In this document: positions 22,615-58,688 of the stretch, piece by piece
How the letters are laid out: each line of letters begins with the position of its first letter
Position numbering within the stretch: the stretch's first letter is position 1
DNA from: Streptomyces fulvoviolaceus
GTDB taxonomy: Bacteria; Actinomycetota; Actinomycetes; Streptomycetales; Streptomycetaceae
NCBI RefSeq assembly: GCF_000718165.1
Contig: NZ_JOEY01000050.1
Span: 35,498 to 99,497, forward strand
Reading direction: 5' to 3'
Length of the DNA: 64,000 nt
The notes under the pieces: model-generated
Database searches by the model: none
Seen by the model: only the letters and a program-made list of their open reading frames with translations
Told to the model about the DNA's origin: nothing
Program-made: the position numbers and the translations under genes

Positions 22615-24522
22615 TCATCTCATCGCGCCGAGCATTCGGCGCAGCCGCGGGGTACCGAGCGCGACCGCCGTACCGACCGCGAGGACACATCCCCCCAGCA
22701 GCAGGAAGTACGCCGCCAGGGGCAACACCGCGGTCAGCCGGAACAACTGGCCTCCCACCACCACACCCACCGCGCCGAACAGGCCGTTCACCGCGAGCAG
22801 TCGGCTGGTGCTGCCGGGCGGTGCGACCGCGGCGGCCAGCGCCAGGCCGGCCGGTGCGAGCGCGATCTCGCCGCAGGAGTAGAGCAGGTAGACCAGCAGC
22901 AGCCAGTACGGGCCGACCGGGCCGTGCTCGGCGAGCCGGGTCGCGACCGCCATCAGCACAAAGCTCAGCCCGGCCGCGATCAGCGCCCCCGCGAACTTGA
23001 CGGGCACGTCGACCCGCGGTCCCGCACGCCGCCAGAGGCGGGCCACGAACGGGGCGGCCAGCAGGACGAAGAGCGGGTGCACGGACTGGAACCAGCTGGC
23101 GGGGACCTCGAAGCCGAGCACGTCCCGGTCGGTGTGGCGCTCCGCGAACAGACTGAGCACCGAGCCGCTCTGCGCGAAGATCATCCAGAACGCGGCCGAG
23201 GCCGCCATCAGCGCGGTGAACCCGGCCAGTTGGCGCCGGTTCCCCTCCCCGGGCGGGGCGGCCCGGCGCAGTGAGCGCAGGTACCAGAACGGGAGGGTGA
23301 CCGTGGTCAGGCCGAGGACGGCGAGCACCGCGGGCAGCGGCAGCAGTCCGAGGGACGCCGGTACGACCAGCAGCGCGGCCACCGCCCCCGTGGCCCCCGC
23401 GGCACGCCTGAGCATCGCGGCGGCCTCGGCGTGCGGCACCGGGCGGGCGGGACGCGCGCCCACGTCTCCGTACCGGCGCCGGCCGAGGGCGAACTGGACC
23501 AGGCCCGCCGTCATGCCGACCGCGGCCGCGGCGAAGCCCAGGTGCCAGGCGACGCGCTCCGCCAACAGGCCCGTGACGACGGGGGCGACGAGCGCGCTGA
23601 CCTGGATGCACAGGTAGAAGAGCGAGAAGGCGGCCTCACGGCGGCCCGCCCCGTCCCCGCTGACCCCCGCGACCATCGCCGCCATGGCCGGCTTGACCAG
23701 GCCGGTGCCCGCGACGACCAGCAGCAGCCCGGCGTAGAGCGTGCCCGGCACCGGGACCGCGAGGACCGCGTGGCCGCAGGTGATGAGGACCCCGCCGAGC
23801 AGGACCGCCCGGCGGGCGCCCAGCACCCGGTCGGCGAGCCAGCCGCCGGGCAGGCCGGCCATGAAGCTCAGCGACATGTACGCCGCGAAGACCGCGGTGG
23901 CCGTCTGCGGGGCCATGCCCATGCCGCCGCGGGCCTCGAAGGCGGTCAGGTACAGCACCAGGATCGCCGCCATGCCGAAGAAGCTGAACCGCTCCCACAG
24001 GTCGACCGCGAGCAGGGTGCCGAAGCCGGGTCCGCGACCGCGTCCCGACCGCACCGCCACGGCGGGGGTGGCGGACACGCTGGGGAGGGCGGAGGCCTCG
24101 GAGGGCCTCGGTGCGCCGGGCGCCGTGGGGGTCCGAGGAGCTCCGGAGGCCACGGAGCCCGTGACGGCCCGAGGAGCTCCGGAAGCCCCCGAGGCCGCGA
24201 AGACCCCAGAAGCTCCCGGGACGCCGGAGGCCGTGGGCGTGGTGTCCGGTGAGGCCGCGAAGACCCCAGAAGCTCCCGAGACACCGGACGCCGTGGGCGT
24301 GACGTCCGGCGAGGCCGCGAAGACCCCAGAAGCACCCGAGACACCGGACGCCGGAGGCGTGACGTCCGGAGAGGCCGCGAAGACCCCAGAAGCACCCGAG
24401 ACACCGGACGCCGGAGGCGTGACGTCCGGAGAGGCCGCGAAGACCCCAGAAGCACCCGGGACACCGGAGGCCGTAGGCGTGGTGTCCGGTGTTGGATCCG
24501 GCGGGGTGCGGGAGGCATCCAC
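22615..24522 (-). CDS. POT/PTR-family transporter with repetitive N-terminus
   Basis: The 635-residue protein has a membrane core from about residue 170 on with 12-14 helices and the proton-oligopeptide transporter look (VDLWERFSFFGMAAILVLYLTA, then AAYMSLSFMAGLPGGWLADRVLG). The first 150 residues contain five nearly perfect 20-residue repeats (ASGVFAASPDVTPPASGVSG), which the family lacks. The GTG at 24522 is only 6 nt after the methyltransferase stop, so it may be the last gene of the polyketide operon, perhaps for export. A later start near residue 165 cannot be excluded. Confidence 0.8.
   Translation of the reverse strand: MDASRTPPDPTPDTTPTASGVPGASGVFAASPDVTPPASGVSGASGVFAASPDVTPPASGVSGASGVFAASPDVTPTASGVSGASGVFAASPDTTPTASGVPGASGVFAASGASGAPRAVTGSVASGAPRTPTAPGAPRPSEASALPSVSATPAVAVRSGRGRGPGFGTLLAVDLWERFSFFGMAAILVLYLTAFEARGGMGMAPQTATAVFAAYMSLSFMAGLPGGWLADRVLGARRAVLLGGVLITCGHAVLAVPVPGTLYAGLLLVVAGTGLVKPAMAAMVAGVSGDGAGRREAAFSLFYLCIQVSALVAPVVTGLLAERVAWHLGFAAAAVGMTAGLVQFALGRRRYGDVGARPARPVPHAEAAAMLRRAAGATGAVAALLVVPASLGLLPLPAVLAVLGLTTVTLPFWYLRSLRRAAPPGEGNRRQLAGFTALMAASAAFWMIFAQSGSVLSLFAERHTDRDVLGFEVPASWFQSVHPLFVLLAAPFVARLWRRAGPRVDVPVKFAGALIAAGLSFVLMAVATRLAEHGPVGPYWLLLVYLLYSCGEIALAPAGLALAAAVAPPGSTSRLLAVNGLFGAVGVVVGGQLFRLTAVLPLAAYFLLLGGCVLAVGTAVALGTPRLRRMLGAMR
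24191..24490 (-). repeat. five tandem 60-bp repeats in the POT gene
   Basis: Units begin at 24191, 24251, 24311, 24371 and 24431 with GAGGCCGCGAAGACCCCAGA and are almost identical. They encode 20-residue repeats in the N-terminal extension of the transporter. Because 60 is a multiple of 3, unit gain or loss keeps the frame. Confidence 0.9.
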
Positions 24523-24528
24523 CGCCGG

Positions 24529-25347
24529 TCACCGGGCCGGTTTGAGTGCCGCTCCGGCCAGCATCGCGAGGCTCGGGTCGGGGGTGTCCGCCGGTTCGGG
24601 GCGCCACAGCGGGGCGCGGACCACGCCGGGCTCCAGGAGCTCGAAGTCCCCGAAGAGTGCGGCGAGTTCACGGTTGTCGCGCCAGATGACCTGGCTCACC
24701 GCGCCCCGGTACTGCTCGGCGGCCTCCGGTGCGGCCCGCGGGACCTCCTCCGCGCCGGCGTGCGAGATCACCAGGGCGCTGCCGGGCGCGAGCCCCTCGG
24801 TGTACTGCCCGACCAGGGCGAGCGGGTCGTCCGAGTCCGGGACGAAGTGCAGTACGGCGGCGAGGATCAGCGCGACCGGCTGCCCGAAGTCGATCAGCCG
24901 GCGGGTGTCGGGCGCGTCCAGGATCTCCCGGGACTTGTAGAGGTCGCCCTGGAAGACGGCTGCCCGGGGTTCGTCGGCCAGCAGGGCCCGGCCGTGCGCG
25001 ACGGCCACCGGGTCGATGTCGACGTAGACGACCTTGCTGTCCGGGTGAGCGGCGAGGGCCACGTCGTGCACGTTGCCCTCGGCCGGGATGCCGGAGCCGA
25101 TGTCCAGGAACTGGCGTATGCCGAGCGCCGACAGCTCCCGTACCGCGCGGCGCAGGAAGGCGCGGTTGGCGCGGAGCGTGGCGGGGAGGTCCGGGTTGCC
25201 GGCGGCGACCTTGCGGGCGAGCTCCCGGTCCGCCGGGAAGTTGTGGGTGCCGCCGATCCAGAAGTCGTAGACCCGGGCGATGCTCGGGGTGTCGATGTCG
25301 ACCTCCGGGGGCGCCCAGGCCGGGCGCTCGGTGTCCTGCTGTTCCAC
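24529..25347 (-). CDS. SAM-dependent methyltransferase (Methyltransf_19/DUF574)
   Basis: The 272-residue protein matches the actinobacterial DUF574 family in length and motifs: PSIARVYDFWIGGTHNFPADRELA, QFLDIGSGIPAEGNVHDVA (SAM motif I), VVYVDIDPVAVAHGRALL and LILAAVLHFVPDSDDP. Substrates of this family are unknown. It is on the same strand 49 nt after the P450 stop, so it could act in the polyketide pathway, but members are also common elsewhere in Streptomyces genomes. Confidence 0.85.
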   Translation of the reverse strand: MEQQDTERPAWAPPEVDIDTPSIARVYDFWIGGTHNFPADRELARKVAAGNPDLPATLRANRAFLRRAVRELSALGIRQFLDIGSGIPAEGNVHDVALAAHPDSKVVYVDIDPVAVAHGRALLADEPRAAVFQGDLYKSREILDAPDTRRLIDFGQPVALILAAVLHFVPDSDDPLALVGQYTEGLAPGSALVISHAGAEEVPRAAPEAAEQYRGAVSQVIWRDNRELAALFGDFELLEPGVVRAPLWRPEPADTPDPSLAMLAGAALKPAR

Positions 25348-25396
25348 GGGTGTCTCCTCCAGTAGCCGGTAGCCAATAGGTGGGGCGGGTGGGCTG

Positions 25397-26644
25397 TTAC
25401 GCCGTGAACACCGGGAGTTCCTCGAGGCCGCGCATCATCAGGCTGCTGCGCCAGCGCAGTTCGGCCACGTCCACGGCGGGCCGCAGGGCGGGGAAGCGCG
25501 CGAAGAGGCGGCTGATGACGATCTGCCCTTCGAGCCGGGCCAGCGGGGCGCCCAGGCAGTGGTGGATGCCGTGGCCGAAGGCGACCGAGGCGCTGTGGGA
25601 CCGGGTGACGTCCAGGCGGTCCGGGTCGGAGTAGCGGGCCGGGTCGCGGCCCGCGGCGCCGAGCGAGATGGTCACGAACTCGCCCTCGGGGATGACCACG
25701 TCACCGACCTCGACGGGTTCGGTGGTGAACCGCCAGGTGGCGTTGGTGACCGGGCCGTCGTAGCGGAGGAACTCCTCCACGGCCGCGGGCCACAGGGAGG
25801 CGTCCGCGGCGAGCTGCTCGCGCACCCCGGGATGGGTGAGCAGGGCGAGGGTGCCGTTGCCGATGAGGTTGACCGTGGTCTCGTGGCCGGCCACCAGCAG
25901 CAGGAACGCCATGGAGATCAGCTCGTCGGACGACAGCTGGTCGCCGGCGTCCTGGGCGTGCACGAGGTCGGTGAGCATGTCGTCGGCCGGTTCGGCCCGC
26001 TTGGTCTCGATCAGCGCCTTCAGGTAGGCGATCATCGACGCGCTGGCCTCGCGGACCTCTTCGGTGCCCGCGCCGGAGACGAGCAGGTTGGACCAGCGGC
26101 GGAAGGCGGCCCGGTCGTCCGGAGGCACTCCGAGCAGCCAGCAGATGACCGTGAACGGCACCGGGAAGGCGAGGGCCTCCATCAGGTCCACCTCGGCGTG
26201 CCGGGCGACGGCTTCCAGCAGTTCGTCGGTGAGTTCGGTGATGCGGGGCCGCAGGGACTCGACCCGGCGTGCGGTGAAGGCCCGGCCGACGAGTCGGCGC
26301 AGCCGGGTGTGGTCCGGCGGGTCGCTGTCGAGCATGTGCACGCTGAGGACGTGCGGGAACTGGCTGCGCTCGCCCGACTCCGCCAGGAACTCCCGCTGTT
26401 TGTCGGGGTCGGCGAAGTTGCGCGGGATGAGGTCCTTGCCGACCCGCATGTCCTTGCTCAGCCGGGGGTCGGCGAGCAGCTCCCGGGCGTGCTCGTAGCC
26501 GGTGACCAGCCAGGTGCGCAGTCCGTTCGGCGTCATCACGGGCACGGCGGGGGCGGTCTGCCGCAGCTCGGCCAGCGCCTCGTGCGGGTTCTGGTGGAAG
26601 GCGGGTGTGAACAGGTCGGCCGGCGGGGTGTCCGTGCGGGCCAT
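25397..26644 (-). CDS. cytochrome P450
   Basis: The 415-residue soluble P450 has I-helix AGHETT (252-257), K-helix EFLR (291-294) and heme motif FGHGIHHCLG with the axial Cys at residue 363. The length and N-terminus are those of bacterial class I P450s (CYP105/107-like). It starts 2 nt after the stop of the ABM gene upstream, inside the polyketide operon, so oxidation of the aromatic polyketide is the likely role. The redox partners are not encoded nearby. Confidence 0.95.
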   Translation of the reverse strand: MARTDTPPADLFTPAFHQNPHEALAELRQTAPAVPVMTPNGLRTWLVTGYEHARELLADPRLSKDMRVGKDLIPRNFADPDKQREFLAESGERSQFPHVLSVHMLDSDPPDHTRLRRLVGRAFTARRVESLRPRITELTDELLEAVARHAEVDLMEALAFPVPFTVICWLLGVPPDDRAAFRRWSNLLVSGAGTEEVREASASMIAYLKALIETKRAEPADDMLTDLVHAQDAGDQLSSDELISMAFLLLVAGHETTVNLIGNGTLALLTHPGVREQLAADASLWPAAVEEFLRYDGPVTNATWRFTTEPVEVGDVVIPEGEFVTISLGAAGRDPARYSDPDRLDVTRSHSASVAFGHGIHHCLGAPLARLEGQIVISRLFARFPALRPAVDVAELRWRSSLMMRGLEELPVFTA

Positions 26645-26646
26645 TC

Positions 26647-27087
26647 TCAGGCTCCTTCCGTGGCGAGTTCGGTGGCGGGTTCCGTGACGAGATCGGTGGC
26701 GGGTTCCGTGACCAGTTCGGTGGCGGGTTCCGTGGCGTGGGCGAGGTCGGCCGCGCCGGTCCGGTCTCCCGGGTAGTGGGCGAGCTCCCGGTAGATCTCG
26801 AAGGGGCGGTCCCGGCCGGTGTCGCGGAACTGCCGTAGCGGGGCGGTCTGTTCCTTGTGGGCGGCGCCCTTCTCCCAGGCGGTGAACGCCTCCCAGTCGG
26901 ACCAGCGGCTGACCACGACGTAGCCGCGCGGGTCGCCGAGGGCGTGCAGCAGCTTGTTGCCGAGCAGCCCGGCGGTGCCCGCCATCCGACGGCTGGCCTC
27001 GTGGTACGCGTCCAGCACCGGGTCCGGGTCGTCGCTCAGGTGGTAGAGCACCACCTCCACGGCACCGGAGGCCACTTCGGAGGTCAC
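26647..27087 (-). CDS. antibiotic biosynthesis monooxygenase (ABM) family protein
   Basis: The 146-residue protein has an ABM ferredoxin-like fold: VEVVLYHLSDDPDPVLDAYHEASRRMAGTAGLLGNKLLHALGDPRGYVVVSRWSDWEAFTAWEKGAAH. Cofactor-free ABM enzymes oxidise anthrones and phenols in aromatic polyketide pathways. The tail repeats TEPATELV/TEPATDLV three times and is probably flexible. The GTG start overlaps the stop of the upstream ABM gene (GTGA), so the two are co-translated and may form a hetero-oligomer. Confidence 0.85.
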   Translation of the reverse strand: MTSEVASGAVEVVLYHLSDDPDPVLDAYHEASRRMAGTAGLLGNKLLHALGDPRGYVVVSRWSDWEAFTAWEKGAAHKEQTAPLRQFRDTGRDRPFEIYRELAHYPGDRTGAADLAHATEPATELVTEPATDLVTEPATELATEGA

Positions 27088-27410
27088 GACGCGGCGCCGG
27101 GGAGGGCGGCGACGACGTGCATGGTCGTCATGGAGCCGCCGCTGCGGTACGGGTGCAGTTTCTGCCGGTGTTCCAGATGCCGGTCGCTGGTCTCGAACTC
27201 GCGGAAGCGCGGCTCGTCCACCCAGTCGCTGACGATGTAGTAGATGCCGTTCTCCTCGGCGCTGCGGGACAGCCACTGGCCGAGGTTGGCGGGGTGCGCG
27301 GTGACCGAGTCGCCGACCTCCAGCCAGACCTTCTCGAACTCGTTCTCGAGGTCCGGCTTGATCTGCATCCGCAGCATGACCCGGAACACCTGCTCGGACG
27401 GCTCGGACAT
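27084..27410 (-). CDS. antibiotic biosynthesis monooxygenase (ABM) family protein
   Basis: The 108-residue single-domain ABM protein reads FRVMLRMQIKPDLENEFEKVWLEVGDSV, then NGIYYIVSDWVDEPRFREFETSDRHLEHRQKL. It resembles small quinone-forming monooxygenases of pentangular polyphenol clusters (pairs as in pradimicin-type pathways). It starts 1 nt after the stop of the ketoreductase gene and overlaps the second ABM gene by 4 nt. Likely step: oxygenation of a hydroquinone or anthrone ring to the quinone. Confidence 0.87.
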   Translation of the reverse strand: MSEPSEQVFRVMLRMQIKPDLENEFEKVWLEVGDSVTAHPANLGQWLSRSAEENGIYYIVSDWVDEPRFREFETSDRHLEHRQKLHPYRSGGSMTTMHVVAALPGAAS

Positions 27411-27411
27411 G

Positions 27412-28161
27412 TCAGATCCCCCCGTCGACGTTGAGGGTCTCGCCGGTGATGTACGCGGCGGCGTCGCTCAGCAGGAACAGCACCGGGCCGGCCAGTTCGT
27501 CCACGGTGCCGAGGCGGGCGAGCGCGGTCTTGCGGGAGTAGGTGGCCCGCAGTCCGTCGGCGCGGTCGGCGGGCATGGTGGCGAAGGCCTCGGTCTCGAT
27601 GACGCCGGGGGCGACCACGTTGACGCGGATGCCCTGCGGGCCGAGTTCCTTGGCGAGCGAGCGGGTCAGCCCGATCATGGCGGCCTTGGCGGCGGTGTAG
27701 TGGGCGCGCAGCGGGATGCCCGCCGCGGCGCCGCGCGAGCCGATGTTGACGACCGAGGAGCCGGCGCCGAGCAGCGGCAGCGCCTGCTGGATGATCCGGT
27801 AGGCGGCCGTGAGGTTGGTGTCGAGGATCCGCGACCACTCCTCGGCGGGCAGCTCCGCGAACGGGATGTGGCTGATCACGCCCGCGTTGTTGACGATGCC
27901 GTCGAGCCGCCCGAAGCGGTCCTTGGCCTCGCCGACGAGCCGGTCGACCTCGGCGGTGTCACCGACGTCCGCGCGCAGCACGTGGTGGTCGCCGGCGGTC
28001 TCCTTGAGGGCGGCGGTCAGGCTGTCGACGGCCTCGCTCTCCTGCCGGTAGCAGGTGAGGACGTCGGCGCCGGCGCGGGCCGCGGCGAGGACGATGCCCC
28101 GGCCGATGCCGCGGGTGCCGCCGGTGACGATCAGTTTCTTGCCGTGCAGTGCGAGTTCCAC
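27412..28161 (-). CDS. SDR-family ketoreductase
   Basis: The 249-residue short-chain dehydrogenase has the NADPH motif TGGTRGIG (13-20), NNAG (91-94), Ser in GSSVVNIGS and the catalytic pair YTAAK (Tyr155, Lys159). The GTG start lies 7 nt after GGAGGT. It closely resembles the SDR half of the fused protein upstream (shared [15 protein letters not shown] and TCYR), so the two arose by duplication. It probably reduces a keto group of the nascent or cyclised polyketide. Confidence 0.92.
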   Translation of the reverse strand: MELALHGKKLIVTGGTRGIGRGIVLAAARAGADVLTCYRQESEAVDSLTAALKETAGDHHVLRADVGDTAEVDRLVGEAKDRFGRLDGIVNNAGVISHIPFAELPAEEWSRILDTNLTAAYRIIQQALPLLGAGSSVVNIGSRGAAAGIPLRAHYTAAKAAMIGLTRSLAKELGPQGIRVNVVAPGVIETEAFATMPADRADGLRATYSRKTALARLGTVDELAGPVLFLLSDAAAYITGETLNVDGGI

Positions 28162-28190: not shown

Positions 28191-29837
<1,647 letters not shown>

Positions 29838-31112
29838 CTAGGCGGGCTGCGCCCGCAAGGGTCGGTCGCCTGCGCCCACCAACAGCGCTGACGTGAAGCC
29901 GCCGTGGCCGCGGGCCAGTACCAGGGCCGTGCGTGGGTCTGTCTGGCGGGGGCGGTCCAGGACCAGGTCGATTTCGCAGCCTGGGGCCGGGCGGCCGAGG
30001 CCCGCGGTGTGGGGGACCACGCCCGCGCTCAGGGCGAGCAGCGCGGTCGCCACGTCCAGTGCGGCGCCGCCGGCGTAGAGGCGTCCCGTGAGGGTCTTCG
30101 GTGCGGTCACCGGCACTCCGCCGGGGCCGAAGACCTCGGTGATCGCGCGGGCCTCGGCGAGGTCCTCGGCGGGTACGCCGGAGGCGTCGGCGAAGACCAT
30201 GTCGACGGCGTCCGGGGTGAGGCCGGCGTCGGTGAGGGCGCGGTGGATGACGGAGACCAGTACCGAGTGGCGGGCGGCCGTACCGTCCGCCGTGGGGTCG
30301 AAGCCCGCCGCGTAGCCGAGGAGTTCGCCGTACGACGGGACCCCGCGGGCCCGTGCCGCCTCGGCGTTCTCGACCACGAGGATGGCGCCGCCCTCGCCCG
30401 GGACGAAGCCGGAGGCGGCCGCGTCGAAGGGCAGATAGGCGCGGGCGGGATCGTCCTCGGTGGACAGGTGGCCGGTGGACAGCTGCGCCACCAGGCCGTA
30501 CGGGCACAGCGAGGCGTCGGTGCCGCCGCTGAGGACGAGCCGGGAGCCGGTGTCCAGCAGCCGGCGGGACTGGCCGAGGGCGTCCAGTCCGCCGGCCTGC
30601 TCGCCGCAGATGACCCCGCAGGGGCCGCGCATGCCGTGCCGGATGGAGACCTGGCCGGTGGTGGCCGCGTAGAACCAGGCGATCGACTGATAGGCGCCGA
30701 CCCAGGAGGAGCCCTGCTGGTAGAGGTTCTCCATCTCGTGCTGGCCGAACTCGGTGCCGCCCGAGGAACTGGCCGTCACCACCGCCATCTCGTACTCCGG
30801 CAGGGTCGCCGGATCGGCGGCGGCGTCCGCGAGGGCGTCCTCGGCGGCGGCCAGCGCGAAGTGCGTGAACCGGTCGGTCTGCGGCACGAGCCGTCCCGGG
30901 ACCTGTTCACCGGCCCGGAAGCCGGGGACCTCACCGGCGACCCGGACGGGGTAGCCGGTCGGGTCGAACCGGGTGATCCGGCCGATGCCGCTCTTGCCCG
31001 CGAGCACCGACTCCCAGTGCCGGGCGGCACCGATCCCGGTGGGCGCGACCACGCCGATCCCGGTGACCACGGACCGGCCGCGGCGACCGGGGCGTATGCC
31101 GGAGGCGCTCAT
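29838..31112 (-). CDS. type II PKS chain length factor (KS-beta)
   Basis: The 424-residue KS-fold protein has Gln172 ([13 protein letters not shown]) where ketosynthases carry the catalytic Cys, the mark of chain length factors. It also lacks the second active-site His pattern of KS-alpha. It pairs with KS-alpha to form the heterodimer that decarboxylates malonyl-ACP and sets chain length; the number of units cannot be read directly. Its ATG overlaps the KS-alpha stop (ATGA), so the subunits are made in step. Confidence 0.96.
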
Positions 31113-32395: not shown

Positions 32396-32823
32396 CGGGC
32401 CGCTCCGACATCGGGGTTGCCCGCGCTCGCGTCGAGCGGCTGCTCGGTGTCGACGTGGCCGAGCTCGGGGCGCGGCGCGAGCGGGGAGAGGTGGAAGACC
32501 GCCTCGGCCGGCACGGACCCGGTGTTCACCAGGCGGTGGCGTACCCCGATGGGCACCAGCAGCGAGTCGCCGGGGCCGAGTTCGACCGGGGCGCCGCGGT
32601 CCAGCGTCATCTCGAGGCGGCCCTGGACGACGTGCAGGAACTCCTCGGAGTACGGGTGGTAGTGCTCGGTGACGTGGTGGCCGGGGGCCAGCCGCAGCAC
32701 CCCGCCGAAGCCCGAGGTGCAGCCCACGGTCTTCGGGCTGAGGGTGACGCGGATGTCGCCGCCGCGCTTGGTGTTGGCGGCGACCTCGTTCGCGGCGACC
32801 CTGGTGGTGGCGGGGGCGCTCAT
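32392..32823 (-). CDS. cupin-domain protein of aromatic polyketide cluster
   Basis: The 143-residue cupin has the metal motif [30 protein letters not shown], then [20 protein letters not shown]. Cupins of this kind lie just before KS-alpha in whiE spore pigment and pentangular clusters and are thought to assist late cyclisation or oxidation. The start at 32823 overlaps the TcmI-type cyclase stop by 4 nt; the longer frame to 32886 lies inside that gene. Confidence 0.88.
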
Positions 32824-51049: not shown

Positions 51050-51538
51050 ATGGAGACTTCGACTCAGCCCTCGCCGCAGGCAGTGGATCTGCTCGACGCG
51101 GTCGGCCCCGCCTTCTCCCGACTGCGGCGCGCCCAGGCGCTGAACGTCGAGAAGCAGGTGTCCCGCAAGGACATCACCAGGACCCTGGTGCTCAACATCG
51201 TCCAGGACGGTCCGGACGCGGAGGGCCAGGAGATCACCGTCGGGGTGGTGGGCGAGCGGCTGGCCGTCGACCCCTCCGTGGCGAGCCGGATGGTCTCCGA
51301 CTGCATCACCGCCGGCTATCTGATCCGCGCGGCCTCCCAGCGCGACGGCCGCCGCACGATCCTCCAGCTCACCCCGGAGGGCCACGAGACGCTCGCCCGC
51401 TTCCGCCGCCACCAGCGCGCGGCCTTCGAGCGCATCACCCAGGACTGGCCGGAGCAGGAGCGGCTCGAGTTCGCCCGCCTGCTCATCAAGTACGTCGACT
51501 CCGTGGGCGAGTTGCAGCAGGACCCGGGTTCCGCCTGA
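51050..51538 (+). CDS. MarR-family transcriptional regulator
   Basis: The 162-residue winged-helix regulator reads VEKQVSRKDITRTLVLNIVQDGP, then VGVVGERLAVDPSVASRMVSDCITAGYLIRAASQRDGRRTILQLTPEGHETL (recognition helix and wing), then a C-terminal dimer helix. MarR proteins repress divergent genes and release DNA on binding phenols or quinones, so a cluster intermediate is a likely ligand. It is divergent from the FAD hydroxylase operon and terminates at 51552-51580. Confidence 0.93.
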   Translation: METSTQPSPQAVDLLDAVGPAFSRLRRAQALNVEKQVSRKDITRTLVLNIVQDGPDAEGQEITVGVVGERLAVDPSVASRMVSDCITAGYLIRAASQRDGRRTILQLTPEGHETLARFRRHQRAAFERITQDWPEQERLEFARLLIKYVDSVGELQQDPGSA

Positions 51539-51588: not shown

Positions 51589-53220
51589 TCACCCTCGCGC
51601 GAGGACCCTCCGCAGTACCGCCGTCAGCACCGCGCTCTCCGCACCCCCGGGATCCGCCCCCACCGACCGCCAGGCGACGACACCGTCCGGCCGTACCAGC
51701 ACGGCACCTTCGGGACGCAGACCGCCGTAGCGCTCGGACCAGTGGTCGTCCGGGTCGGCCAGTGAGCCCGCCCCGCCACCCGCGCCCGGCACCACCCGGC
51801 GCGCGGTGATCTTCAGCCCCAGCCCGGCGGAGGCCGCGACCGCGGCGGACATCCACTCCCCGCCGCGCGCCCCGACCAGCAGCACGAAGTCACGCCCGAA
51901 CAGGTCGAGCGTGGAGACGGGTTCGCCACCGCGCGACAGCATCACGTACGGCGCCCGGGTCCCCGGCGCGCCGCGCAGCGCCCGTGGATCGGAGGCGACC
52001 GGCAGGGCCGCGCTCCCCGCCTCCTCGACGACCGCGGCGGAACGGTAGGCCTGCCCCGACGTCACCGTCACCGCGTCCGCCGCGGCAGCCTGTTGCTCGG
52101 GGGTGGCACTGCCGGACCGCACCGCGAGCTGCAGGGATCCCTGCTCGGCCGTGTAGACCGCCACCGGCCGCCGCTCGGCGTCGTACGTCTCCACCAGACC
52201 GGCCCCCGCGACCCCGTCGACCACCAGAGCGAGCTTCCAGGCGAGGTTGTGGGCGTCGGCGATCCCGGTGTTGGCGCCGTAGCCCCCGGTCGGCGGTACG
52301 ACGTGCGCCGCGTCCCCGGCGAGCAGCACCCTCCCGTGCACGAACCCCTCGGCGACCTGCTCCGCCATGTCCCAGGGGAAGCGGGAACGGATCGTCACCT
52401 CGACCCCGGGCGCCCCGATCGCGGCACCCACCAGCTCGGCGCAGCGGGCGTCGGTGAAGTCCTCCAGGCTCTCGCCGTCCTCGGGCCGGTACCCGACGAT
52501 CAGCGTGCCCCCGGTCAGCCGGTCGTCATGCACGAGGATGCCCGTGACCTGGGGGTTCTTCACATGGACCACGCTGTAGCGGCGCTCCCCCAGCACCGGC
52601 CGCAGATCCGCGCCGAACGCGATGCTCACATGCCGGGACAGCACCCCGCGCCCCTGCCGGGGCACCTTCAGCGCCTCCCGCACGGTGCTGCGCGGCCCGT
52701 CGCAGGCGACCAGGTAGGAGCTGCGGAAGGTGCTGGTCCCGCCGGCCCCGTCACCGAGGACGGCGGTGACCCCGTCCGGGTCCTCCGCGAAGGACAGCAG
52801 CTCGGTACCGAACCTGAGGTCGGCGCCGAGCTCCACGGCACGGTCCCGCAGCAACGGCTCCAGCCGGTCCTGGGGAAGGAGGAGCAGCCGGGACGGCGTG
52901 AGGTCGCCCAGCTCGTCGTCGCCCTCCAACTCCTCCTTGCTGAACAGCACTTCACCCGCCAGGGAAGTCACCCCGGCCCGGGTGCGGTGCGTCGCGAACC
53001 CCGAGGCGTCCTGTACAGCGGCGTCCTCGACCCCGGCCTGGCGCAGCAGCTCCCCGGTCCGGGGGTAGTAGCCGACGGCCCGCGGATGGATGGAGGTGCC
53101 CGGATGCCGCTCCACCAGGGTGCAGCGGACCCCGTGACGGGCGAGGAACAGAGCGGTGGACAGCCCGACGAGGCTGCCGCCGACGATCAGGACGGGTGCG
53201 CTGTCGGAATGGGAAGTCAT
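51589..53220 (-). CDS. class A FAD-dependent aromatic monooxygenase
   Basis: The 543-residue enzyme has VLIVGGSLVGLSTALFLARHGV, PRAVGYYPRTGELLRQAG, VACDGPRSTVREALKVPRQGRG and VLLAGDAAHVVPPTGGYGANTGIADAHNLAWKLALVV, with tail VLVRPDGVVAWRSVG. It is of the same subgroup as 39490-41073 and 41543-43150. The ATG at 53220 follows GAGAGGGG. The gene follows the SnoaL-like gene by 35 nt on the same strand. Likely another ring hydroxylation or oxidative cleavage step. Confidence 0.93.
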   Translation of the reverse strand: MTSHSDSAPVLIVGGSLVGLSTALFLARHGVRCTLVERHPGTSIHPRAVGYYPRTGELLRQAGVEDAAVQDASGFATHRTRAGVTSLAGEVLFSKEELEGDDELGDLTPSRLLLLPQDRLEPLLRDRAVELGADLRFGTELLSFAEDPDGVTAVLGDGAGGTSTFRSSYLVACDGPRSTVREALKVPRQGRGVLSRHVSIAFGADLRPVLGERRYSVVHVKNPQVTGILVHDDRLTGGTLIVGYRPEDGESLEDFTDARCAELVGAAIGAPGVEVTIRSRFPWDMAEQVAEGFVHGRVLLAGDAAHVVPPTGGYGANTGIADAHNLAWKLALVVDGVAGAGLVETYDAERRPVAVYTAEQGSLQLAVRSGSATPEQQAAAADAVTVTSGQAYRSAAVVEEAGSAALPVASDPRALRGAPGTRAPYVMLSRGGEPVSTLDLFGRDFVLLVGARGGEWMSAAVAASAGLGLKITARRVVPGAGGGAGSLADPDDHWSERYGGLRPEGAVLVRPDGVVAWRSVGADPGGAESAVLTAVLRRVLARG

Positions 53221-53255: not shown

Positions 53256-54089
53256 TCACGGCGTCGGCAGCCCCGCCTTGCCGAGCGCCAGGTAGTCGAC
53301 GACCTCCCAGTGCTCGGCGACCTTCCCGCGCTCGATCCGGAACTGGTCGCAGGTGCGCATCTCGAGCGGCAGCCCGGAGGGACCGCCCCCGCTCCAGGCC
53401 CCGGTGAGCGTGCCGGTCCAGGTCACGAACACCATCACCCGGTCGTCGGCGGCGACGAGGTGGTCCACGGTGGTGACCAGGTCGGGGAAGGCGGCGATGT
53501 TGTCCGCGAAGAACGCCTTGAAGGCGTCGAGCCCGTCCGGCACCGCGTCCGTACGCATGTTGTGGTGCCGGTAGTCCTGGTGGTAGTAGCGCTCGGCCAG
53601 CTCCAGCCGGTGCTCGCTGAAGACGTCGCGGTACGCGCCGAGCACCAGCTCCGCGTTGGCCCGCTCGGTGTCGCTGTGCGGGCCGTGCAGCCCGGGAGCG
53701 GCCGGCTGACCGCTCCGCTCCGGCCCGCCGTCCACACCGTGCGCGGCGAGCACGTCCCGGTCCACCACGTTCCAGTGCTCGGCGACCCTGCCGTCCCGCA
53801 GCCGGTACAACTCGGCGGTGTGCAGCCTGAGTTCGGCCCCGGCAGGGGTGCGCCCGGTCCAGGTCGCGAAGAGCATCACCCGGTCGTTGTCGGCCACCAG
53901 ATGATCGATGTCCGCCGACAGCCCACGCCGGTCCGGCGTCTTCCAGTCGATCGGGTCGTGCTCGACGTGGTCGGCGTGGAAGAAGCGACCGGCCTCCTCG
54001 AAGCGGTGCTCGCGGTACAGCGTCCCGTACAGGTCGCGGACCAGCTCGGCGTTGCGCGTGCGCTGCCCGGCGGGCATCACAGTGGTCAT
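53256..54089 (-). CDS. tandem SnoaL-like (NTF2-fold) protein
   Basis: The 277-residue protein consists of two copies of a SnoaL-like domain: residues 8-118 (NAELVRDLYGTLYREHRFEEAGRFFHADHVEHDP...LRDGRVAEHWNVVD) and 145-272 (NAELVLGAYRDVFSEHRLELAERYYHQDYRHHN...IERGKVAEHWEVVD). SnoaL-fold proteins act as polyketide cyclases, hydroxylases or epoxide hydrolases without metal. The fused duplication suggests a built-in dimer. It is downstream of the GNAT gene (32 nt) and upstream of the FAD enzyme. Confidence 0.88.
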   Translation of the reverse strand: MTTVMPAGQRTRNAELVRDLYGTLYREHRFEEAGRFFHADHVEHDPIDWKTPDRRGLSADIDHLVADNDRVMLFATWTGRTPAGAELRLHTAELYRLRDGRVAEHWNVVDRDVLAAHGVDGGPERSGQPAAPGLHGPHSDTERANAELVLGAYRDVFSEHRLELAERYYHQDYRHHNMRTDAVPDGLDAFKAFFADNIAAFPDLVTTVDHLVAADDRVMVFVTWTGTLTGAWSGGGPSGLPLEMRTCDQFRIERGKVAEHWEVVDYLALGKAGLPTP

Positions 54090-55087: not shown

Positions 55088-55162
55088 GCCCCACACGGTG
55101 TCGGGCACCTCTCGAAGCACCGTCGAGGACAACTCGACACCAGGAAGGTGGGCACAGCTGAG

Positions 55163-55206: not shown

Positions 55207-55237
55207 CCCGGTACGGCGGCGCGCGCGGGCGGACCCG

Positions 55238-56011
55238 TCAGGCCCCGCCCGTCACCCGGAGGGTCTCGCCGTTGGTGTTGCCGTTGGCGGCGGAGCCGAG
55301 GAAGACGACGGCGTTCGCGACGTCCTCGGGCGCGGACATCCGCCCCGACGGCAGGCTCTTGCCCTTCTCCTCCAGGAACCCGGGCGGCACATGGGCCCGC
55401 ACGGTCTCGGTACCGGTCTGCCCCGGCACCACCATGTTGACCAGGATCCCGTCGGGCCCCAGCTCCCAGGCCAGACTCCGCATCAGCCCGAAGAGCCCGG
55501 ACTTGCCCGCGCCGTACGCTCCCGCGCCCGCCTTGCCGGTGTCCGCGAGGCCCGCGCCGAGCAGCACGACCCGGCCCCACGGACGCCCGCGCATCCAGGG
55601 CAGCGCCGCCTGCAGGGTGTGGAACACGGCCTCGACGGAGTTGCGCAGCACCTCCTGCCACTGCTTCGCCGGTACGTCCTCGAAGCGCGGCACCGGCTGC
55701 CCGGGACGCGGTATCGCCTCGCTCCAGACCACCGCGTTGGCCACCAGTACGTCGATGCCACCCCACTCCTCGGCGACCCGGCCCACCGCGTCCCGTATGG
55801 CCTGCTCGTCCGCGAGGTCGTACCGCACCACCAGCGGCGTACCGCCGGCCTCGGTCACCAGCCGGGCCGTCTCCCGGGCACCGTCCTCGTTGGTGTGGAA
55901 GGTGATCGCGACCCTGGCCCCCTCCTCCCCATACGCCATGGCCGTCGCCCGGCCGATGCCCGAGGAGGCACCGGTGACCAGCACCACCTTGTCCCGCAGA
56001 TCCGTCCTCAT
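55238..56011 (-). CDS. SDR-family oxidoreductase
   Basis: The 257-residue short-chain dehydrogenase has VTGASSGIGRATA (NAD(P) motif) and catalytic YGAGK within GAYGAGKSGLFGL. The usual NNAG is replaced by ANAVVW, and no catalytic-type Ser is obvious at VVLLGAG, so activity may be altered. It starts by ATGA overlap with the BBE-like oxidase, so the two probably act on one substrate. Cluster-typical role: reduction of a ketone or quinone during tailoring. Confidence 0.88.
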   Translation of the reverse strand: MRTDLRDKVVLVTGASSGIGRATAMAYGEEGARVAITFHTNEDGARETARLVTEAGGTPLVVRYDLADEQAIRDAVGRVAEEWGGIDVLVANAVVWSEAIPRPGQPVPRFEDVPAKQWQEVLRNSVEAVFHTLQAALPWMRGRPWGRVVLLGAGLADTGKAGAGAYGAGKSGLFGLMRSLAWELGPDGILVNMVVPGQTGTETVRAHVPPGFLEEKGKSLPSGRMSAPEDVANAVVFLGSAANGNTNGETLRVTGGA

Positions 56012-57453
56012 GACTGTGACTCCCCCTTGCCGATGCCGATGCTCTGCGCGTGCCGGAAGAAGTCCTCCGGGTCGTAGGCCCGCTTCACCTCGCGCAGCCG
56101 GTCGCGGTTCTCGCCGAAGTACTCCGTCTCCCAGTCCGCGCTCACCCGGGAACTGGGGAAGTTGATGTACGAGCCGCTGGCGAGCGGCGCGAGTGCCGTC
56201 GCCGCGCGGTCGGCCAGGGCGGTCAGCCGCGCCGGGGCCGCCGCGTCCTCCGCCACGTCACGGCAGGCGAACTGATAGCCGATCAGGAACCGCGCGTCCC
56301 GGTGGGCGTAGGCCGTCGCGGTCCTCGGCACCCGGTTCGCCGCACCGCCCAGCGCGATGCACAGCAGGTAGCGCTCCTGGCCCACCGCGTCCAGCGCGGG
56401 GTCCCAGGCGTCGAGCAGCGCCGCCGACTCCGCCCGGGTCGCGGCCCGGCCGGTCAGCCGGTAGCTCTGCCGGGTGTACGGATGCCGGTGGCCCTCGGCC
56501 TCGGGGCCGGTGCCGGTGCGATGGCACTGGGCCACCGTCTTCGAGCCGCACAGCGCCTCGTGCATCACCTCGGCATATCCGCCCGGCGGACCGACGGTCC
56601 TGCTCAGCGGCTTGCTCCCGGTCCGTTCCACCAGTTCGTCGAGCCCGGTGCGCACCTCCTCCTCCGTGCCCAGGTGCACCCCCCAGACGCGGACCACGGG
56701 ACGCCCGCCGGGCCCGAACATGCCCGGCAGCACCACCAGCGAGGTGCCGAGCTCGTCCGGCCCCTCGACGGCCCACTCCTGCCAGGCCGTCAGCACCTCC
56801 ACGGCGTCGTCGTACGCCCAGAGCGTCTCGAAGGCGATCAACGTGGGCGCCTCGACCGGCCGCACCTCGAACTCCGTGACGACCCCGAAGGTGCCTCCGC
56901 CACCGCCGCGCAGCGCCCAGTACAGATCGGGCTCCTCGGTGGCCGAGCAGCGGACGGTCCTGCCGTCCGCGAGCACCACGCGCGCCCCGGTGACCAGGTC
57001 ACTGCCCAGCCCGAACCGCCTGGTCTGCCAGCCGATCCCGCCGCCGGTCAGGAACCCGCCCGCGCCGACCGTGGGGAAGGTGCCGGTGACGAGCTGGCGG
57101 CCCTGGGTCCGCAGGGCGTCCAGCGCGTCCAGCGACCGGACGCCCGCCCCGAGACGCACCAGGGGCCCCTCGGCCACGGCGTGGTTCATCCGGGACAGGT
57201 CGACGACCAACCCCTCACCGGTCGACCAGCCGTTGAAGCTGTGGCCGCCGCCCCGGACGTGCAGCCGCACCCCCCGGTCCCGGGCATGGCGCACACAGAG
57301 GGCGATGTCCTCCTCGGAGGCGCAGTACGCGACGGCGTACGGCTCGATCGTGTCGTACTCGGTGTTCTGCAGCTGTCCGGCCAGGGCGTAGCCCGCATCG
57401 TCCGGCAGGACCAGCTCCCCGCCGATCCGGTCCCGCAGCGCTGCCGCCCGCAT
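56008..57453 (-). CDS. BBE-like FAD-linked oxidase
   Basis: The 481-residue protein has the FAD_binding_4 domain with VRGGGHSFNGWSTGEGLVVDLSRM, whose His may bind FAD covalently, and a BBE C-terminus (YINFPSSRVSADWETEYFGENRDRLREVKRAYDPEDFFRHAQSI). The second covalent site Cys of berberine-bridge enzymes is replaced (VGAGGFLTGGGIGW). Such oxidases form C-C or C-O bonds or oxidise alcohols in polyketide pathways. The start overlaps the lipocalin-like stop (TGATG). No signal peptide is visible. Confidence 0.92.
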   Translation of the reverse strand: MRAAALRDRIGGELVLPDDAGYALAGQLQNTEYDTIEPYAVAYCASEEDIALCVRHARDRGVRLHVRGGGHSFNGWSTGEGLVVDLSRMNHAVAEGPLVRLGAGVRSLDALDALRTQGRQLVTGTFPTVGAGGFLTGGGIGWQTRRFGLGSDLVTGARVVLADGRTVRCSATEEPDLYWALRGGGGGTFGVVTEFEVRPVEAPTLIAFETLWAYDDAVEVLTAWQEWAVEGPDELGTSLVVLPGMFGPGGRPVVRVWGVHLGTEEEVRTGLDELVERTGSKPLSRTVGPPGGYAEVMHEALCGSKTVAQCHRTGTGPEAEGHRHPYTRQSYRLTGRAATRAESAALLDAWDPALDAVGQERYLLCIALGGAANRVPRTATAYAHRDARFLIGYQFACRDVAEDAAAPARLTALADRAATALAPLASGSYINFPSSRVSADWETEYFGENRDRLREVKRAYDPEDFFRHAQSIGIGKGESQS

Positions 57454-57821
57454 CAGTCGTCGATGCCGAACTTGCCGGCGGTCACCTTGGAGCCCGCGTG
57501 CCCGCGCAGCTTGGTGCCCTGCGGGTCGAAGAACTCGGCGCCGCCCGTGCCCTGCCACTCGGTGTCCGAGACGAACTCGCCCGACACCCGGACATGCGCC
57601 TCTCCGACATGCTTGCCCTCGGGGTCGGCGGCCAGGACGTGGAAGCCGTACTCGAAGGTGCCGGGGCCCGTGGCACGCCAGGTGCCGAGGCCGATGTTCT
57701 TGGTGTTGAGCTGGGTGGAGACGACCGAGCCGTCCGCCGAGAAGGAGACCAGTCCGGGTACGGCCTTTCCGTCGTCGTCCAGCTGCGTGGTCCAGGTGCC
57801 GACCAGACGTGCGTCGCTCAT
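57453..57821 (-). CDS. lipocalin-like small protein
   Basis: The 122-residue protein begins MSDARLVGTWTTQLDDDGKAVPGLVSFSADGSVVSTQ and continues in strands (GLGTWRATGPGTFEYGFHVL, GEAHVRVSGEFVSDTEWQGTGGAEFFDP), the pattern of a beta-barrel. Such barrels bind hydrophobic ligands or serve as cyclases. The ATG at 57821 follows GAGGAG by 7 nt. The same frame stays open upstream to 58178 with no stop, so a fused 241-residue form is also possible. It overlaps the FAD oxidase start. Confidence 0.72.
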   Translation of the reverse strand: MSDARLVGTWTTQLDDDGKAVPGLVSFSADGSVVSTQLNTKNIGLGTWRATGPGTFEYGFHVLAADPEGKHVGEAHVRVSGEFVSDTEWQGTGGAEFFDPQGTKLRGHAGSKVTAGKFGIDD

Positions 57822-58178
57822 CACGGTTCTCCTCGGGATCGGGAAGTGGGATGGTGCGGCCAGCCTTCCGGCGCGCTCTGGAGACGCGCTCGAGACGTCC
57901 TGTAGGTGGGCGTCCTGTAGGTGGGCGTCCTGCGGGCGGGAGTCCTGTGGACGGGACTCCTGTAAGTGGGGGCCGAACTCCGGATGCCAGAGCGCGGCCA
58001 CGTGCATGGACCCGAGCGCGACCAGACCCCGGTACGACGGCCGCAGGCAGTACCGCACCAGCCCCCGCCACAGACCGTCCAGGACGGTGCCCCGCGCCGG
58101 GACGGCGATCTTGTCGGGATGTCCCTCGGGCAGTAGCCGGGGGTCGAACGGACGAACAGCCACAGCGCTCCTCGGCAT
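57822..58178 (-). other. in-frame upstream reading frame with 15-bp repeats and a TTA codon
   Basis: This frame starts at ATG 58178 (GAGGACTC ahead), 15 nt after the stop of the methyltransferase-like gene. It encodes about 90 coding-like residues (PFDPRLLPEGHPDKIAVPAR, RGLVALGSMHVAALWHPEFG) and runs into 15-bp repeats (57896-57967) encoding QDAHL and QDSRP units. It has no stop before the lipocalin-like gene. A TTA codon (57963-57965, residue 72) would make translation depend on the bldA tRNA. I do not recognise the protein. A stop may have been lost through the repeats. Confidence 0.45.
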
Positions 58179-58193
58179 GAGTCCTCGGCGCGG

Positions 58194-58688
58194 TCAGGCG
58201 GCGCAGACCGCCATCTCCACGCCACCGTCGAAGGGAAGGGGCAGCGAGACATAACCGCTGCCGGGAACCCGGATGTGGGTCAGGAACTCCGCGCACCGCC
58301 CCGGCACGTCCCGGACGCCGTACGCCACGATCACCGCACCGGGCAGCATCCTGGGCTCCATCAGCTTCAGCAGTGTCAGGAAGGACTCCGGCGGCCCCCC
58401 GAGCAGCAGCAGATCGACCGGCCCGGGCACGGCCGGCAGCAGCCGCTCCGGACTGCCCACCCGCACCTGTGCGTACCGCCCGAGCCCGGCCTTCTCCACC
58501 GCCGCCGCGGCCAGCCCGGCACGTACGGCGTCCGGCTCGCAGCACAGAACCCGGCCCCGTCCGTTCTCCCGCAGCGCCGCCGCGATCCACGCGGTGGACG
58601 ACTCGTCCGGGCAGCCGGCCTGGAGCACATTGAGCGGTCCGGCCGCCAGCACCAGTTGTCGCAGGAGGGTCGAGGTGGAATCAGGCAT
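58194..58688 (-). CDS. methyltransferase-fold protein with degenerate SAM motif
   Basis: The 164-residue protein resembles YrrM/caffeoyl-CoA O-methyltransferases in layout: VLQAGCPDESSTAWIAAALRENGRGRVLCCEPDAVRAGLAAAAVEKAGL, then VDLLLLGGPPESFLTLLKLMEPRMLPGAVIVAYG. The usual GxGxG loop is AGCPDES, so SAM binding may be weak or lost. The ATG at 58688 follows GGGGAG. It is the first gene of the last minus-strand operon of the cluster, ahead of the lipocalin, FAD oxidase and SDR genes. Confidence 0.72.
   Translation of the reverse strand: MPDSTSTLLRQLVLAAGPLNVLQAGCPDESSTAWIAAALRENGRGRVLCCEPDAVRAGLAAAAVEKAGLGRYAQVRVGSPERLLPAVPGPVDLLLLGGPPESFLTLLKLMEPRMLPGAVIVAYGVRDVPGRCAEFLTHIRVPGSGYVSLPLPFDGGVEMAVCAA

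What the first reader, a model, noticed from the sequence alone, without database searches (positions are those of the whole stretch)
22615..58688. Large type II polyketide cluster of pentangular-polyphenol character
One minus-strand operon carries TcmI-type cyclase, cupin, KS-alpha (Cys172), CLF (Gln172), ACP, fused cyclase/ketoreductase, ketoreductase, two ABM enzymes and a P450. Around it are a SARP, an anthrone-oxygenase-like protein, a Ddn-like protein, an amide synthetase, four FAD monooxygenases, two O-methyltransferases, a BBE-like oxidase, two quinone reductases, a MarR and an exporter. Seen: the families and order. Known: this set is typical of pentangular or xanthone/spiroketal-type aromatics. 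Inferred: a highly oxidised, O-methylated, possibly amidated product. No halogenase or sugar genes were found.
Basis: partly seen in the sequence, partly recalled or inferred. Interest (0 to 1): 0.75.

Follow-up and report, generated by a model that had tools for sequence, protein, structure and literature searches.

The report
Rubromycin-type antibiotic gene cluster
This stretch of a Streptomyces-type genome carries an apparently complete set of genes for a red antibiotic of the known rubromycin family, so the cluster itself is ordinary, but one of its enzymes lacks the amino acid through which its partner is thought to switch it on.

Summary
Genes 22615-58688 form one type II polyketide cluster (KS-alpha Cys172, CLF Gln172; no sugar or halogenase genes found by Pfam). 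The enzyme at 51589-53220 is 91% identical (490 of 539) to RubL, the solved spiroketal synthase, and keeps all nine RubL residues checked. Orthologues of GrhO1, GrhO6, GrhO10 and the diagnostic acetyltransferase GrhJ are present, GrhO6 and GrhJ 3.2 kb apart. All 32 protein genes recur collinearly in four other Streptomyces (63-98% identity). The AsnB-like 'amide synthetase' is a shared gene (GrhP/RubR), so 'amidated' is not supported. A spore-pigment-type locus lies elsewhere in the genome. The likely product is a beta/gamma-rubromycin-like methyl ester (inferred). Two side results go further. (1) The lysine reported as GrhJ's target (GrhO6 K5) is missing here; 36 of 45 homologues have no lysine in that N-terminal stretch, while GrhJ's putative catalytic His is kept in 64 of 64. 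(2) The cluster is a 36.3 kb insertion at the 3' end of tRNA-Glu; seven other genomes show the empty site.

The parts
22615..24078 (-). POT-family (peptide/MFS) transporter, conserved left end of the cluster
   Evidence: PF00854; 75-94% in the four closest clusters
24529..25347 (-). SAM methyltransferase (Methyltransf_19)
   Evidence: PF04672; 85-94% in four clusters, no hit in the fetched A. soli and SID12501 stretches
25397..26644 (-). cytochrome P450, RubU-like (C-methyl oxidation, inferred)
   Evidence: 85-92% in four clusters, 37% to the P450 of A. soli; RubU role proposed in PMC7232196 (passages)
26647..27060 (-). ABM protein, RubT/GrhV position; true start probably further in (homologues cover 70-79%)
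27084..27410 (-). ABM monooxygenase, RubH/GrhU position
27412..28161 (-). ketoreductase, GrhO10/RubG type; S142, R152, Y155, K159, Y208 kept
   Evidence: 81% to A. soli
28191..29345 (-). fused cyclase/ketoreductase, RubF/GrhT
   Evidence: 69% to A. soli
29405..29668 (-). acyl carrier protein, RubC position
   Evidence: PF00550; DSL motif, Ser42
29838..31112 (-). chain-length factor (CLF), Gln172, RubB
31109..32395 (-). ketosynthase alpha, Cys172, RubA
32392..32823 (-). cupin cyclase, RubD/GrhS
32820..33191 (-). TcmI-type cyclase, RubE/GrhQ
   Evidence: PF04673
33988..35919 (-). SARP regulator, RubS position
   Evidence: BTAD, NB-ARC; 79-93% in four clusters
36224..38101 (-). AsnB-like protein, RubR/GrhP
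   Evidence: 79% to A. soli
38098..38631 (-). RubW/GrhN position, weak Ddn-like (TIGR00026 below cut-off)
38628..39077 (-). anthrone-oxygenase-like, RubQ/GrhM
   Evidence: PF08592; 77% to A. soli
39490..41073 (+). FAD monooxygenase, RubP/GrhO9 position and strand
41543..43150 (-). FAD monooxygenase, RubO/GrhO8 position
43147..44211 (-). O-methyltransferase, GrhL
   Evidence: 79% to A. soli
44395..45849 (-). MFS exporter (DHA2 family)
46189..47166 (-). quinone oxidoreductase, GrhO7
   Evidence: 77% to A. soli
47306..48283 (-). second quinone oxidoreductase; in A. soli and SID12501 it hits only the GrhO7 locus
48332..49345 (-). second O-methyltransferase; only weak matches (27-28% over about half) in A. 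soli and SID12501
49380..50924 (-). FAD monooxygenase GrhO6/RubN (ring contraction); no Lys before the GGGPVG motif
51083..51538 (+). MarR regulator, RubM/GrhR3
51589..53220 (-). spiroketal synthase GrhO5/RubL
   Evidence: 490 of 539 identical to RubL 7ouj; nine RubL residues kept
53256..54089 (-). tandem SnoaL-like protein, RubK position
   Evidence: 78-93% in four clusters, no hit in A. soli or SID12501
54122..55096 (-). tandem GNAT acetyltransferase GrhJ; His81 (HyalJ numbering) kept
55238..56011 (-). SDR, RubJ/GrhO2
56008..57453 (-). flavoprotein oxidase GrhO1/RubI (VAO/PCMH, BBE-like), RGGGH motif from residue 67
57453..58163 (-). unknown protein, GrhI position; true start probably further in; holds the only TTA codon among the called cluster genes
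58194..58688 (-). Methyltransf_24 protein, right end of the cluster
   Evidence: PF13578; 63-89% in four clusters, no hit in A. soli or SID12501
22540..22613 (+). tRNA-Glu(UUC); the insertion starts at its 3' end
58925..58944 (+). degenerate copy (15 of 20) of the tRNA-Glu 3' end: attR-like right border

Best explanation
An apparently complete rubromycin-type biosynthetic cluster. The minimal PKS (31109-32395, 29838-31112, 29405-29668) builds a C26 tridecaketide, which the cyclases and ketoreductases fold into a pentangular scaffold. ABM, anthrone-oxygenase-like, GrhO8/O9-type and AsnB-like proteins and an O-methyltransferase convert it to a collinone-type intermediate. RubL (51589-53220) with the oxidase GrhO1/RubI (56008-57453) rearranges this to a [6,6]-spiroketal. 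GrhO6/RubN (49380-50924), helped by GrhJ (54122-55096), contracts it to the [5,6]-spiroketal, and GrhO10/RubG (27412-28161) reduces the labile ketone. The RubU-type P450 and extra methyltransferases finish a beta/gamma-rubromycin-like methyl ester. Shown here: the genes, their orthology, order and key residues. Inferred from published work on the orthologues: each chemical step. Inferred only: the exact product.
For: RubL identity 490 of 539. RubL residues H51, R87, E103, H225, F287, W289, D309, P316, R374 are all present (residues taken from passages of PMC9299503). The five ARX21 residues named in PMC9215129 are found in the ketoreductase at a constant offset of two. GrhJ relatives recovered from organisms reported as rubromycin-family producers: S. 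hyaluromycini 69%, S. piniterrae 68%, A. soli 67%, Lentzea tibetensis 55%; also Actinoplanes ianthinogenes 52% (producer status recalled). GrhO6 and GrhJ lie 3.2 kb apart, within the definition of PMC13200261. 32 of 32 protein genes found in the same order in SA15, S. poonensis, S. tropicalis and BV286. Gene order matches the rub/grh columns of Table 5 of PMC5765640. CLF clade of 13 rows with 98% SH-aLRT includes S. collinus, S. hawaiiensis and S. tuirus.
Against: No metabolite data. The JP95 GrhO6 and GrhJ sequences and the rub record AF293355 were not in hand, so identity to them is indirect except for RubL and GrhO5 (PDB). The S. collinus CLF was identified by its database name only; another S. 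collinus CLF is 76% identical. CLF similarity alone does not mark the class: S. niger and Streptomyces sp. CT34 have CLFs 82% and 78% identical but no GrhJ at E 1e-20.
Confidence: 0.94

Rival explanations
1. It makes a rubromycin-family congener other than beta/gamma-rubromycin, because of the extra methyltransferases (24529, 48332, 58194), the second quinone reductase or the tandem SnoaL protein.
For: These genes gave no hit, or only a weak or paralogous one, in the A. soli and SID12501 clusters. The three methyltransferases have no row with a rub counterpart in Table 5 of PMC5765640.
Against: All of them recur in each of the four closest clusters, so they look like part of the standard set of this clade rather than an addition in this strain. 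RubK, a cyclase, is in the rub column of Table 5. The published rub cluster was only partially sequenced (PMC9215129, passage), so absence from its column says little.
Confidence: 0.2
2. A non-spiroketal pentangular cluster (lysolipin, fredericamycin or xantholipin type).
For: Shares the pentangular PKS core, cupin and TcmI-type cyclase.
Against: GrhO5, GrhO6, GrhO1 and GrhJ orthologues are all present; PMC7933358 reports GrhO1/O5/O6 candidates absent from fredericamycin, lysolipin and arixanthomycin clusters (passage; xantholipin is not named in that passage).
Confidence: 0.02
3. A spore pigment (whiE-like) cluster.
For: Type II minimal PKS with cupin and TcmI-type cyclase.
Against: A SchA/CurD-containing locus with its own KS, CLF and ACP lies on contig C10 of the same genome. 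In the CLF tree that locus was the only spore-pigment row and served as outgroup, so the tree by itself is a weak test.
Confidence: 0.005

Closest known systems
rub cluster of Streptomyces collinus (beta-rubromycin; AF293355, partial)
   Same: RubL 91% identical; the order RubI, RubJ, RubK, RubL, RubM, RubN, RubO, RubP, RubQ, RubW, RubR, RubS, RubE, RubD, RubA, RubB, RubC, RubF, RubG, RubH, RubT, RubU, as far as it can be read from the hyaluromycin-ordered Table 5 (where RubK's counterpart stands apart), agrees with the window; a S. collinus CLF is 94% identical
   Different: The window also holds GrhJ, GrhL and GrhO7 orthologues, for which Table 5 of PMC5765640 shows no rub counterpart, and methyltransferases with no rub row there; PMC9215129 says the rub cluster was only partially sequenced
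ruskamycin cluster of Actinacidiphila soli (PMC13200261)
   Same: Shared genes at 55-86% identity (SARP 46% over 42% of its length), including GrhO5 71%, GrhO6 77%, GrhJ 67%, GrhO1 70%
   Different: A. soli has griseorhodin-type epoxidation genes and digitoxose genes (PMC13200261); the window has a RubU-type P450, a SnoaL tandem and extra methyltransferases, and no sugar genes in the Pfam scans
hyaluromycin cluster of S. hyaluromycini (PMC5765640)
   Same: Same core and order in Table 5; GrhO6 orthologue 78%, HyalJ 69%
   Different: No 5-aminolevulinate synthase over cut-off in the whole genome; no CoA ligase or amide synthetase of that kind among the scanned cluster genes

Membership tests
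rubromycin/griseorhodin biosynthetic cluster | grhO6 and grhJ homologues above 40% identity within 60 kb (definition in PMC13200261) | tested here: met
   3.2 kb apart; 77% and 67% to A. soli, 78% and 69% to S. hyaluromycini. Tested through these producers, not against JP95 itself
rubromycin/griseorhodin biosynthetic cluster | GrhO5/RubL spiroketal synthase with its mechanistic residues | tested here: met
   490 of 539 identical to RubL; 9 of 9 residues kept
rubromycin/griseorhodin biosynthetic cluster | GrhO1-type VAO/PCMH flavoprotein oxidase | tested here: met
   56008-57453: 70% to A. soli, best PDB relatives EncM, RGGGH motif
rubromycin/griseorhodin biosynthetic cluster | GrhO10-type C17 ketoreductase | tested here: met
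   ARX21 residues S, R, Y, K, Y found at a constant offset of two, 5 of 5 (list from PMC9215129); best PDB relative 5thq
rubromycin/griseorhodin biosynthetic cluster | makes a [5,6]-spiroketal polyketide | not testable with these tools
   no metabolite data
griseorhodin A (epoxy) subtype | GrhO3 P450 and GrhO4 ferredoxin | tested here: not met
   the only P450 is RubU-like (37% to the A. soli P450); no ferredoxin in the Pfam scans of the called cluster genes
hyaluromycin (C5N amide) subtype | 5-aminolevulinate synthase, CoA ligase and amide-bond synthetase | tested here: not met
   no ALAS over cut-off in the whole genome; best match 318 of 338.55 bits is a glycine C-acetyltransferase; ligase and synthetase sought only among the scanned genes
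GrhJ-GrhO6 K5 acetylation switch (PMC9215129) | target lysine K5 in the N-terminus of GrhO6 | tested here: not met
   no Lys before GGGPVG in the window protein and no upstream start codon in its frame; 9 of 45 homologues have one
GrhJ-GrhO6 K5 acetylation switch (PMC9215129) | GrhJ acetyltransferase with His81 | tested here: met
   His in 64 of 64 sequences kept, the window included
spore pigment (whiE-like) cluster | SchA/CurD-type protein beside the minimal PKS | tested here: not met
   none in the window cluster; found on contig C10 instead

The most novel reading that the evidence does not exclude
GrhJ does not work through lysine 5 of GrhO6 in this cluster, and probably not in most rubromycin clusters. 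The acetyltransferase keeps its putative catalytic His in 64 of 64 sequences, but the published target lysine is absent here, and 36 of 45 homologues have no lysine in that N-terminal stretch, among them the GrhO6 orthologue of S. hyaluromycini, the source of HyalJ. On a 45-row tree, over the 42 rows scored, the lysine needs 7 changes for 7 carriers, no fewer than shuffled labels (mean 6.7). The general switch must then be another residue, the N-terminal amine, or a non-acetylating role.
Probability: 0.5. Interest if true: 0.55.

Novelty: new member of a known kind. Interest (0 to 1): 0.3.

Why it matters
As a cluster it adds one apparently complete relative of the S. collinus rubromycin genes, whose published record is partial, to a family already found 154 times by others (PMC13200261). 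Two by-products matter more. First, the window offers a natural GrhO6 without the reported target lysine beside an intact GrhJ, so the published rule that acetylation of K5 switches on spiroketal ring contraction can be tested directly. Second, it shows a rubromycin cluster as a 36.3 kb insertion at a tRNA-Glu gene, with empty sites in other genomes and related clusters at other places in several relatives, which helps to explain its spread.

Tried and rejected
Considered and rejected: spore pigment; xanthone or fredericamycin type; griseorhodin A subtype (no ferredoxin in the scans, P450 only 37% to the A. soli one); C5N amide subtype. At first I took 41543-43150 as the GrhO5 orthologue because GrhO5 was its best PDB hit; one search showed that 51589-53220 is the RubL orthologue, and 41543-43150 sits in the RubO/GrhO8 position. 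S. hyaluromycini (11.5 Mb genome, similar in size) was considered as the window's source and dropped, because the C5N genes are missing here. A whole-genome search for 5-aminolevulinate synthase gave a match close to the cut-off on contig C11 (318 of 338.55 bits); its neighbours and its far better fit to glycine C-acetyltransferase (654 bits) removed that lead.

Led nowhere: the plasmid search with the CLF gave no near-identical record (best 79.1%). The tRNA-Pro call at 22401-22478 overlaps the coding sequence 20912-22471 and was not called in the fetched empty sites, so I treat it as probably spurious. The att-like right border is weak by similarity alone (15 of 20; 4 of 63,980 window positions score as high, one of them the tRNA itself); its weight comes from its register with the sequence that follows tRNA-Glu in the empty sites.

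Rows dropped before counts: P0165 and P0166 (fragments) from the GrhO6 set (47 to 45); P0167 (41% identity, 829 aa) in addition from the tree; P0131, P0150 and P0156 not scored on the tree because their N-termini exceed 30 residues; P0187 and P0232-P0235 (short) from the GrhJ set (68 to 63, with the window 64). Only the best 120 of 7441 CLF hits were listed; 38 of these 120, with 6 loci, the window and the spore-pigment-type CLF, went into the tree. The cut-offs 1e-150 and 1e-60 bound the GrhO6 and GrhJ sets, and each search scored only the roughly 8000 candidates sharing most words. One search covered 392 genus genomes and its match table was cut. The 17 GrhO6-GrhJ pairs are matched by equal listed contig length, which is a proxy. 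Among the 30 handles, G144 and G396 appear to be one genome (same coordinates).

Full report
What was checked. The window lies in an 11.58 Mb Streptomyces-type genome (G000:C50; its closest CLF relatives are named Streptomyces). Gene calls from codon-position GC and Pfam/NCBIfam scans confirm the cluster between 22615 and 58688. KS-alpha has Cys172 and CLF Gln172 in their motifs.

What it is. The FAD monooxygenase at 51589-53220 matches RubL (PDB 7ouj) at 1056 bits and GrhO5 (7oud) at 763 bits; 490 of 539 aligned residues equal RubL. [quoted passage not shown] PMC9299503, passages). The nine RubL residues that I took from those passages (H51, R87, E103, H225, F287, W289, D309, P316, R374) are all present. 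The other members of the spiroketal machinery are there too: GrhO1-like oxidase, GrhO6-like monooxygenase, GrhJ-like acetyltransferase and GrhO10-like ketoreductase, the last with the five ARX21 residues at a constant offset of two.

The published operational definition of this family is a pair of grhO6 and grhJ homologues above 40% identity within 60 kb (PMC13200261, parts 1 and 2 of 5 read). Here they are 3.2 kb apart, 77% and 67% identical to those of Actinacidiphila soli, the ruskamycin producer of that paper, whose contig was among the fetched loci, and 78% and 69% identical to those of S. hyaluromycini.

Conservation and order. Leaving out one 27-codon ORF, 32 of 32 protein genes of 22615-58688 were found by tblastn in the same order in each of Streptomyces sp. 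SA15 (84-98% identity), S. poonensis (80-97%), S. tropicalis (63-93%) and Streptomyces sp. BV286 (73-95%). In A. soli and SID12501, 29 of 32 gave a hit, some of them weak or paralogous and not all in order. The order agrees with the rub and grh columns of Table 5 in PMC5765640 (section 14 read whole), except that RubK's counterpart stands apart in the hyaluromycin cluster. Compared with A. soli, the window has Methyltransf_19, the RubU-type P450, a second O-methyltransferase, a second quinone reductase, the SnoaL tandem and Methyltransf_24. RubU has been linked to the methoxycarbonyl group (PMC7232196, passages), so a beta/gamma-rubromycin-like methyl ester is the most likely product. This last step is inference.

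Phylogeny. In a quick IQ-TREE tree of 46 CLFs the window joins SA15, S. prunicolor, S. collinus, S. hawaiiensis, S. tuirus and others in a 13-row clade with 98% SH-aLRT; A. soli and S. piniterrae (heliquinomycin) are in a nearby clade. The genome's own spore-pigment-type CLF was the outgroup and the only such row, on a long branch, and the tool warned of long branches meeting there, so the tree is not by itself a test against spore pigments. CLF alone does not define the class: S. niger and CT34 fall near by but gave no GrhJ hit. GrhJ was found in 12 of 19 genomes searched. In 392 genus genomes, CLFs of 88% or more were listed in the window's genome, in four others at full length and in two as partial matches.

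What is not supported. The AsnB-like 'amide synthetase' is GrhP/RubR, shared with the griseorhodin cluster (PMC5765640; that griseorhodin A bears no amide is recalled). No amide-bond synthetase, glycosyltransferase or halogenase over cut-off was found among the scanned genes. A 5-aminolevulinate synthase over the family's cut-off was not found in the whole genome; the nearest match is a glycine C-acetyltransferase. Other genes that might act from an unlinked place were not sought.

Side result 1: the GrhJ switch. PMC9215129 (first of four parts, section 8 and passages) reports that HyalJ activates GrhO6 by acetylating K5 in a peptide DTK(Ac)GTT, and suggests a universal role for these enzymes. 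P0142 (S. californicus) begins MPDTKGTT and so carries that site. The window's GrhO6 orthologue has no lysine before the GGGPVG motif, and its reading frame offers no start codon further upstream. Of 45 homologues kept, 9 have any lysine there; two of these 9 have over-long N-termini that may be mis-annotated. S. hyaluromycini's own orthologue (P0138) begins MTSDQDFDV. By equal listed contig length, 17 GrhO6-GrhJ pairs appear to share a contig; 3 of the 17 have such a lysine, one of them in an over-long N-terminus. Among the window and six fetched clusters with both genes on one contig, 2 of 7 have it (A. soli and S. tropicalis), taking the nearest plausible start; in SA15 and BV286 further start codons upstream in the same frame would add lysines, but would also add 33 to 46 residues. 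GrhJ's His81 is kept in 64 of 64. On a tree built without the N-terminus the lysine needs 7 changes for 7 carriers among 42 scored rows, like shuffled labels (mean 6.7). Lys57 (45 of 46) and Lys319 (46 of 46) are conserved, but K57M kept activity and activation in the paper. A search for papers holding at least two of GrhJ, GrhO6 and acetylation listed four; none of the passages I read discusses this variation, and supplementary files could not be read here. The paper's own caveat stands: K5M could not be produced. Start-site annotation remains the main weakness of this count.

Side result 2: a tRNA-borne block. The cluster starts at the 3' end of tRNA-Glu (22540-22613) and ends before tRNA-Asp and tRNA-Phe. 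The gap between the flanking phosphoesterase and HrpA is 36-38 kb in G000, SA15, AC555_RSS877 and BV286, and 0.7-1.2 kb in G007, G009, G013, G040, G092, G376 and G394, where tRNA-Glu, tRNA-Asp and tRNA-Phe are adjacent, 7 of 7. Of 30 handles searched, 30 had HrpA and 26 the phosphoesterase; of these 26, besides the 4 filled and 7 empty sites, 13 have other spacings (about 1.2-16 kb, not examined for tRNAs except S. poonensis, whose 1.8 kb stretch showed none) and 2 have the genes on different contigs. Related clusters lie elsewhere in G092, G244, G394 (S. tibetensis) and S. poonensis, and G376 has a partial CLF match of 90% elsewhere. At the right end, 58925-58944 repeats the tRNA-Glu 3' end in 15 of 20 positions, in the register expected of an attR. 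In S. tropicalis the same left end of the cluster lies beside a tRNA-Leu. No integrase family was found among the scanned genes of the block.

Verdict. A real, apparently complete, ordinary member of the rubromycin family, new as a locus but not as a kind. 154 such clusters had already been found by others (PMC13200261); whether this one is among them could not be checked. Other papers seen in part: PMC13200232 (part 1 of 4) and PMC12284476 (parts 1 and 2 of 4).

Noticed in passing
window 49380-50924 and 54122-55096: The published acetylation lysine of GrhO6 (K5) is missing although GrhJ is intact; lysines in that N-terminal stretch are scattered across the family (9 of 45 homologues).
   Followed up: yes
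window 22540-22613 and 58925-58944: The cluster is an insertion of about 36.3 kb at the 3' end of tRNA-Glu with a degenerate attR-like copy at the right; empty sites in seven other genomes.
   Followed up: yes
L113 2271-2358: In S. tropicalis the left end of the same cluster lies next to a tRNA-Leu, a second tRNA-linked position.
   Followed up: partly
L119 (G000:C10:178000-197999) 6751-12098: The genome's own SchA/CurD-containing spore-pigment-type cluster.
   Followed up: partly
window 22401-22478: ARAGORN tRNA-Pro call overlapping the C-terminal coding sequence of 20912-22471 and not called in the fetched empty sites; probably spurious.
   Followed up: partly
plasmid records NZ_CP108192, NZ_CP108816, NZ_CP108132, NZ_CP108267, NZ_CP109474, NZ_CP108204: CLFs 78-79% identical lie on Streptomyces plasmids, and GrhJ relatives named '(plasmid)' exist (P0195, P0211), so griseorhodin/rubromycin-like clusters may also travel on plasmids.
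   Followed up: no
window 57453-58163: The only TTA codon among the called cluster genes (codon 67) lies in an N-terminal stretch that homologues seem not to cover, so bldA control of the cluster through it is doubtful.
   Followed up: partly
window 50957-51040: A 27-codon ORF between the divergent MarR and GrhO6 genes is matched at 70-78% in all four close clusters; may be only a conserved promoter region.
   Followed up: no
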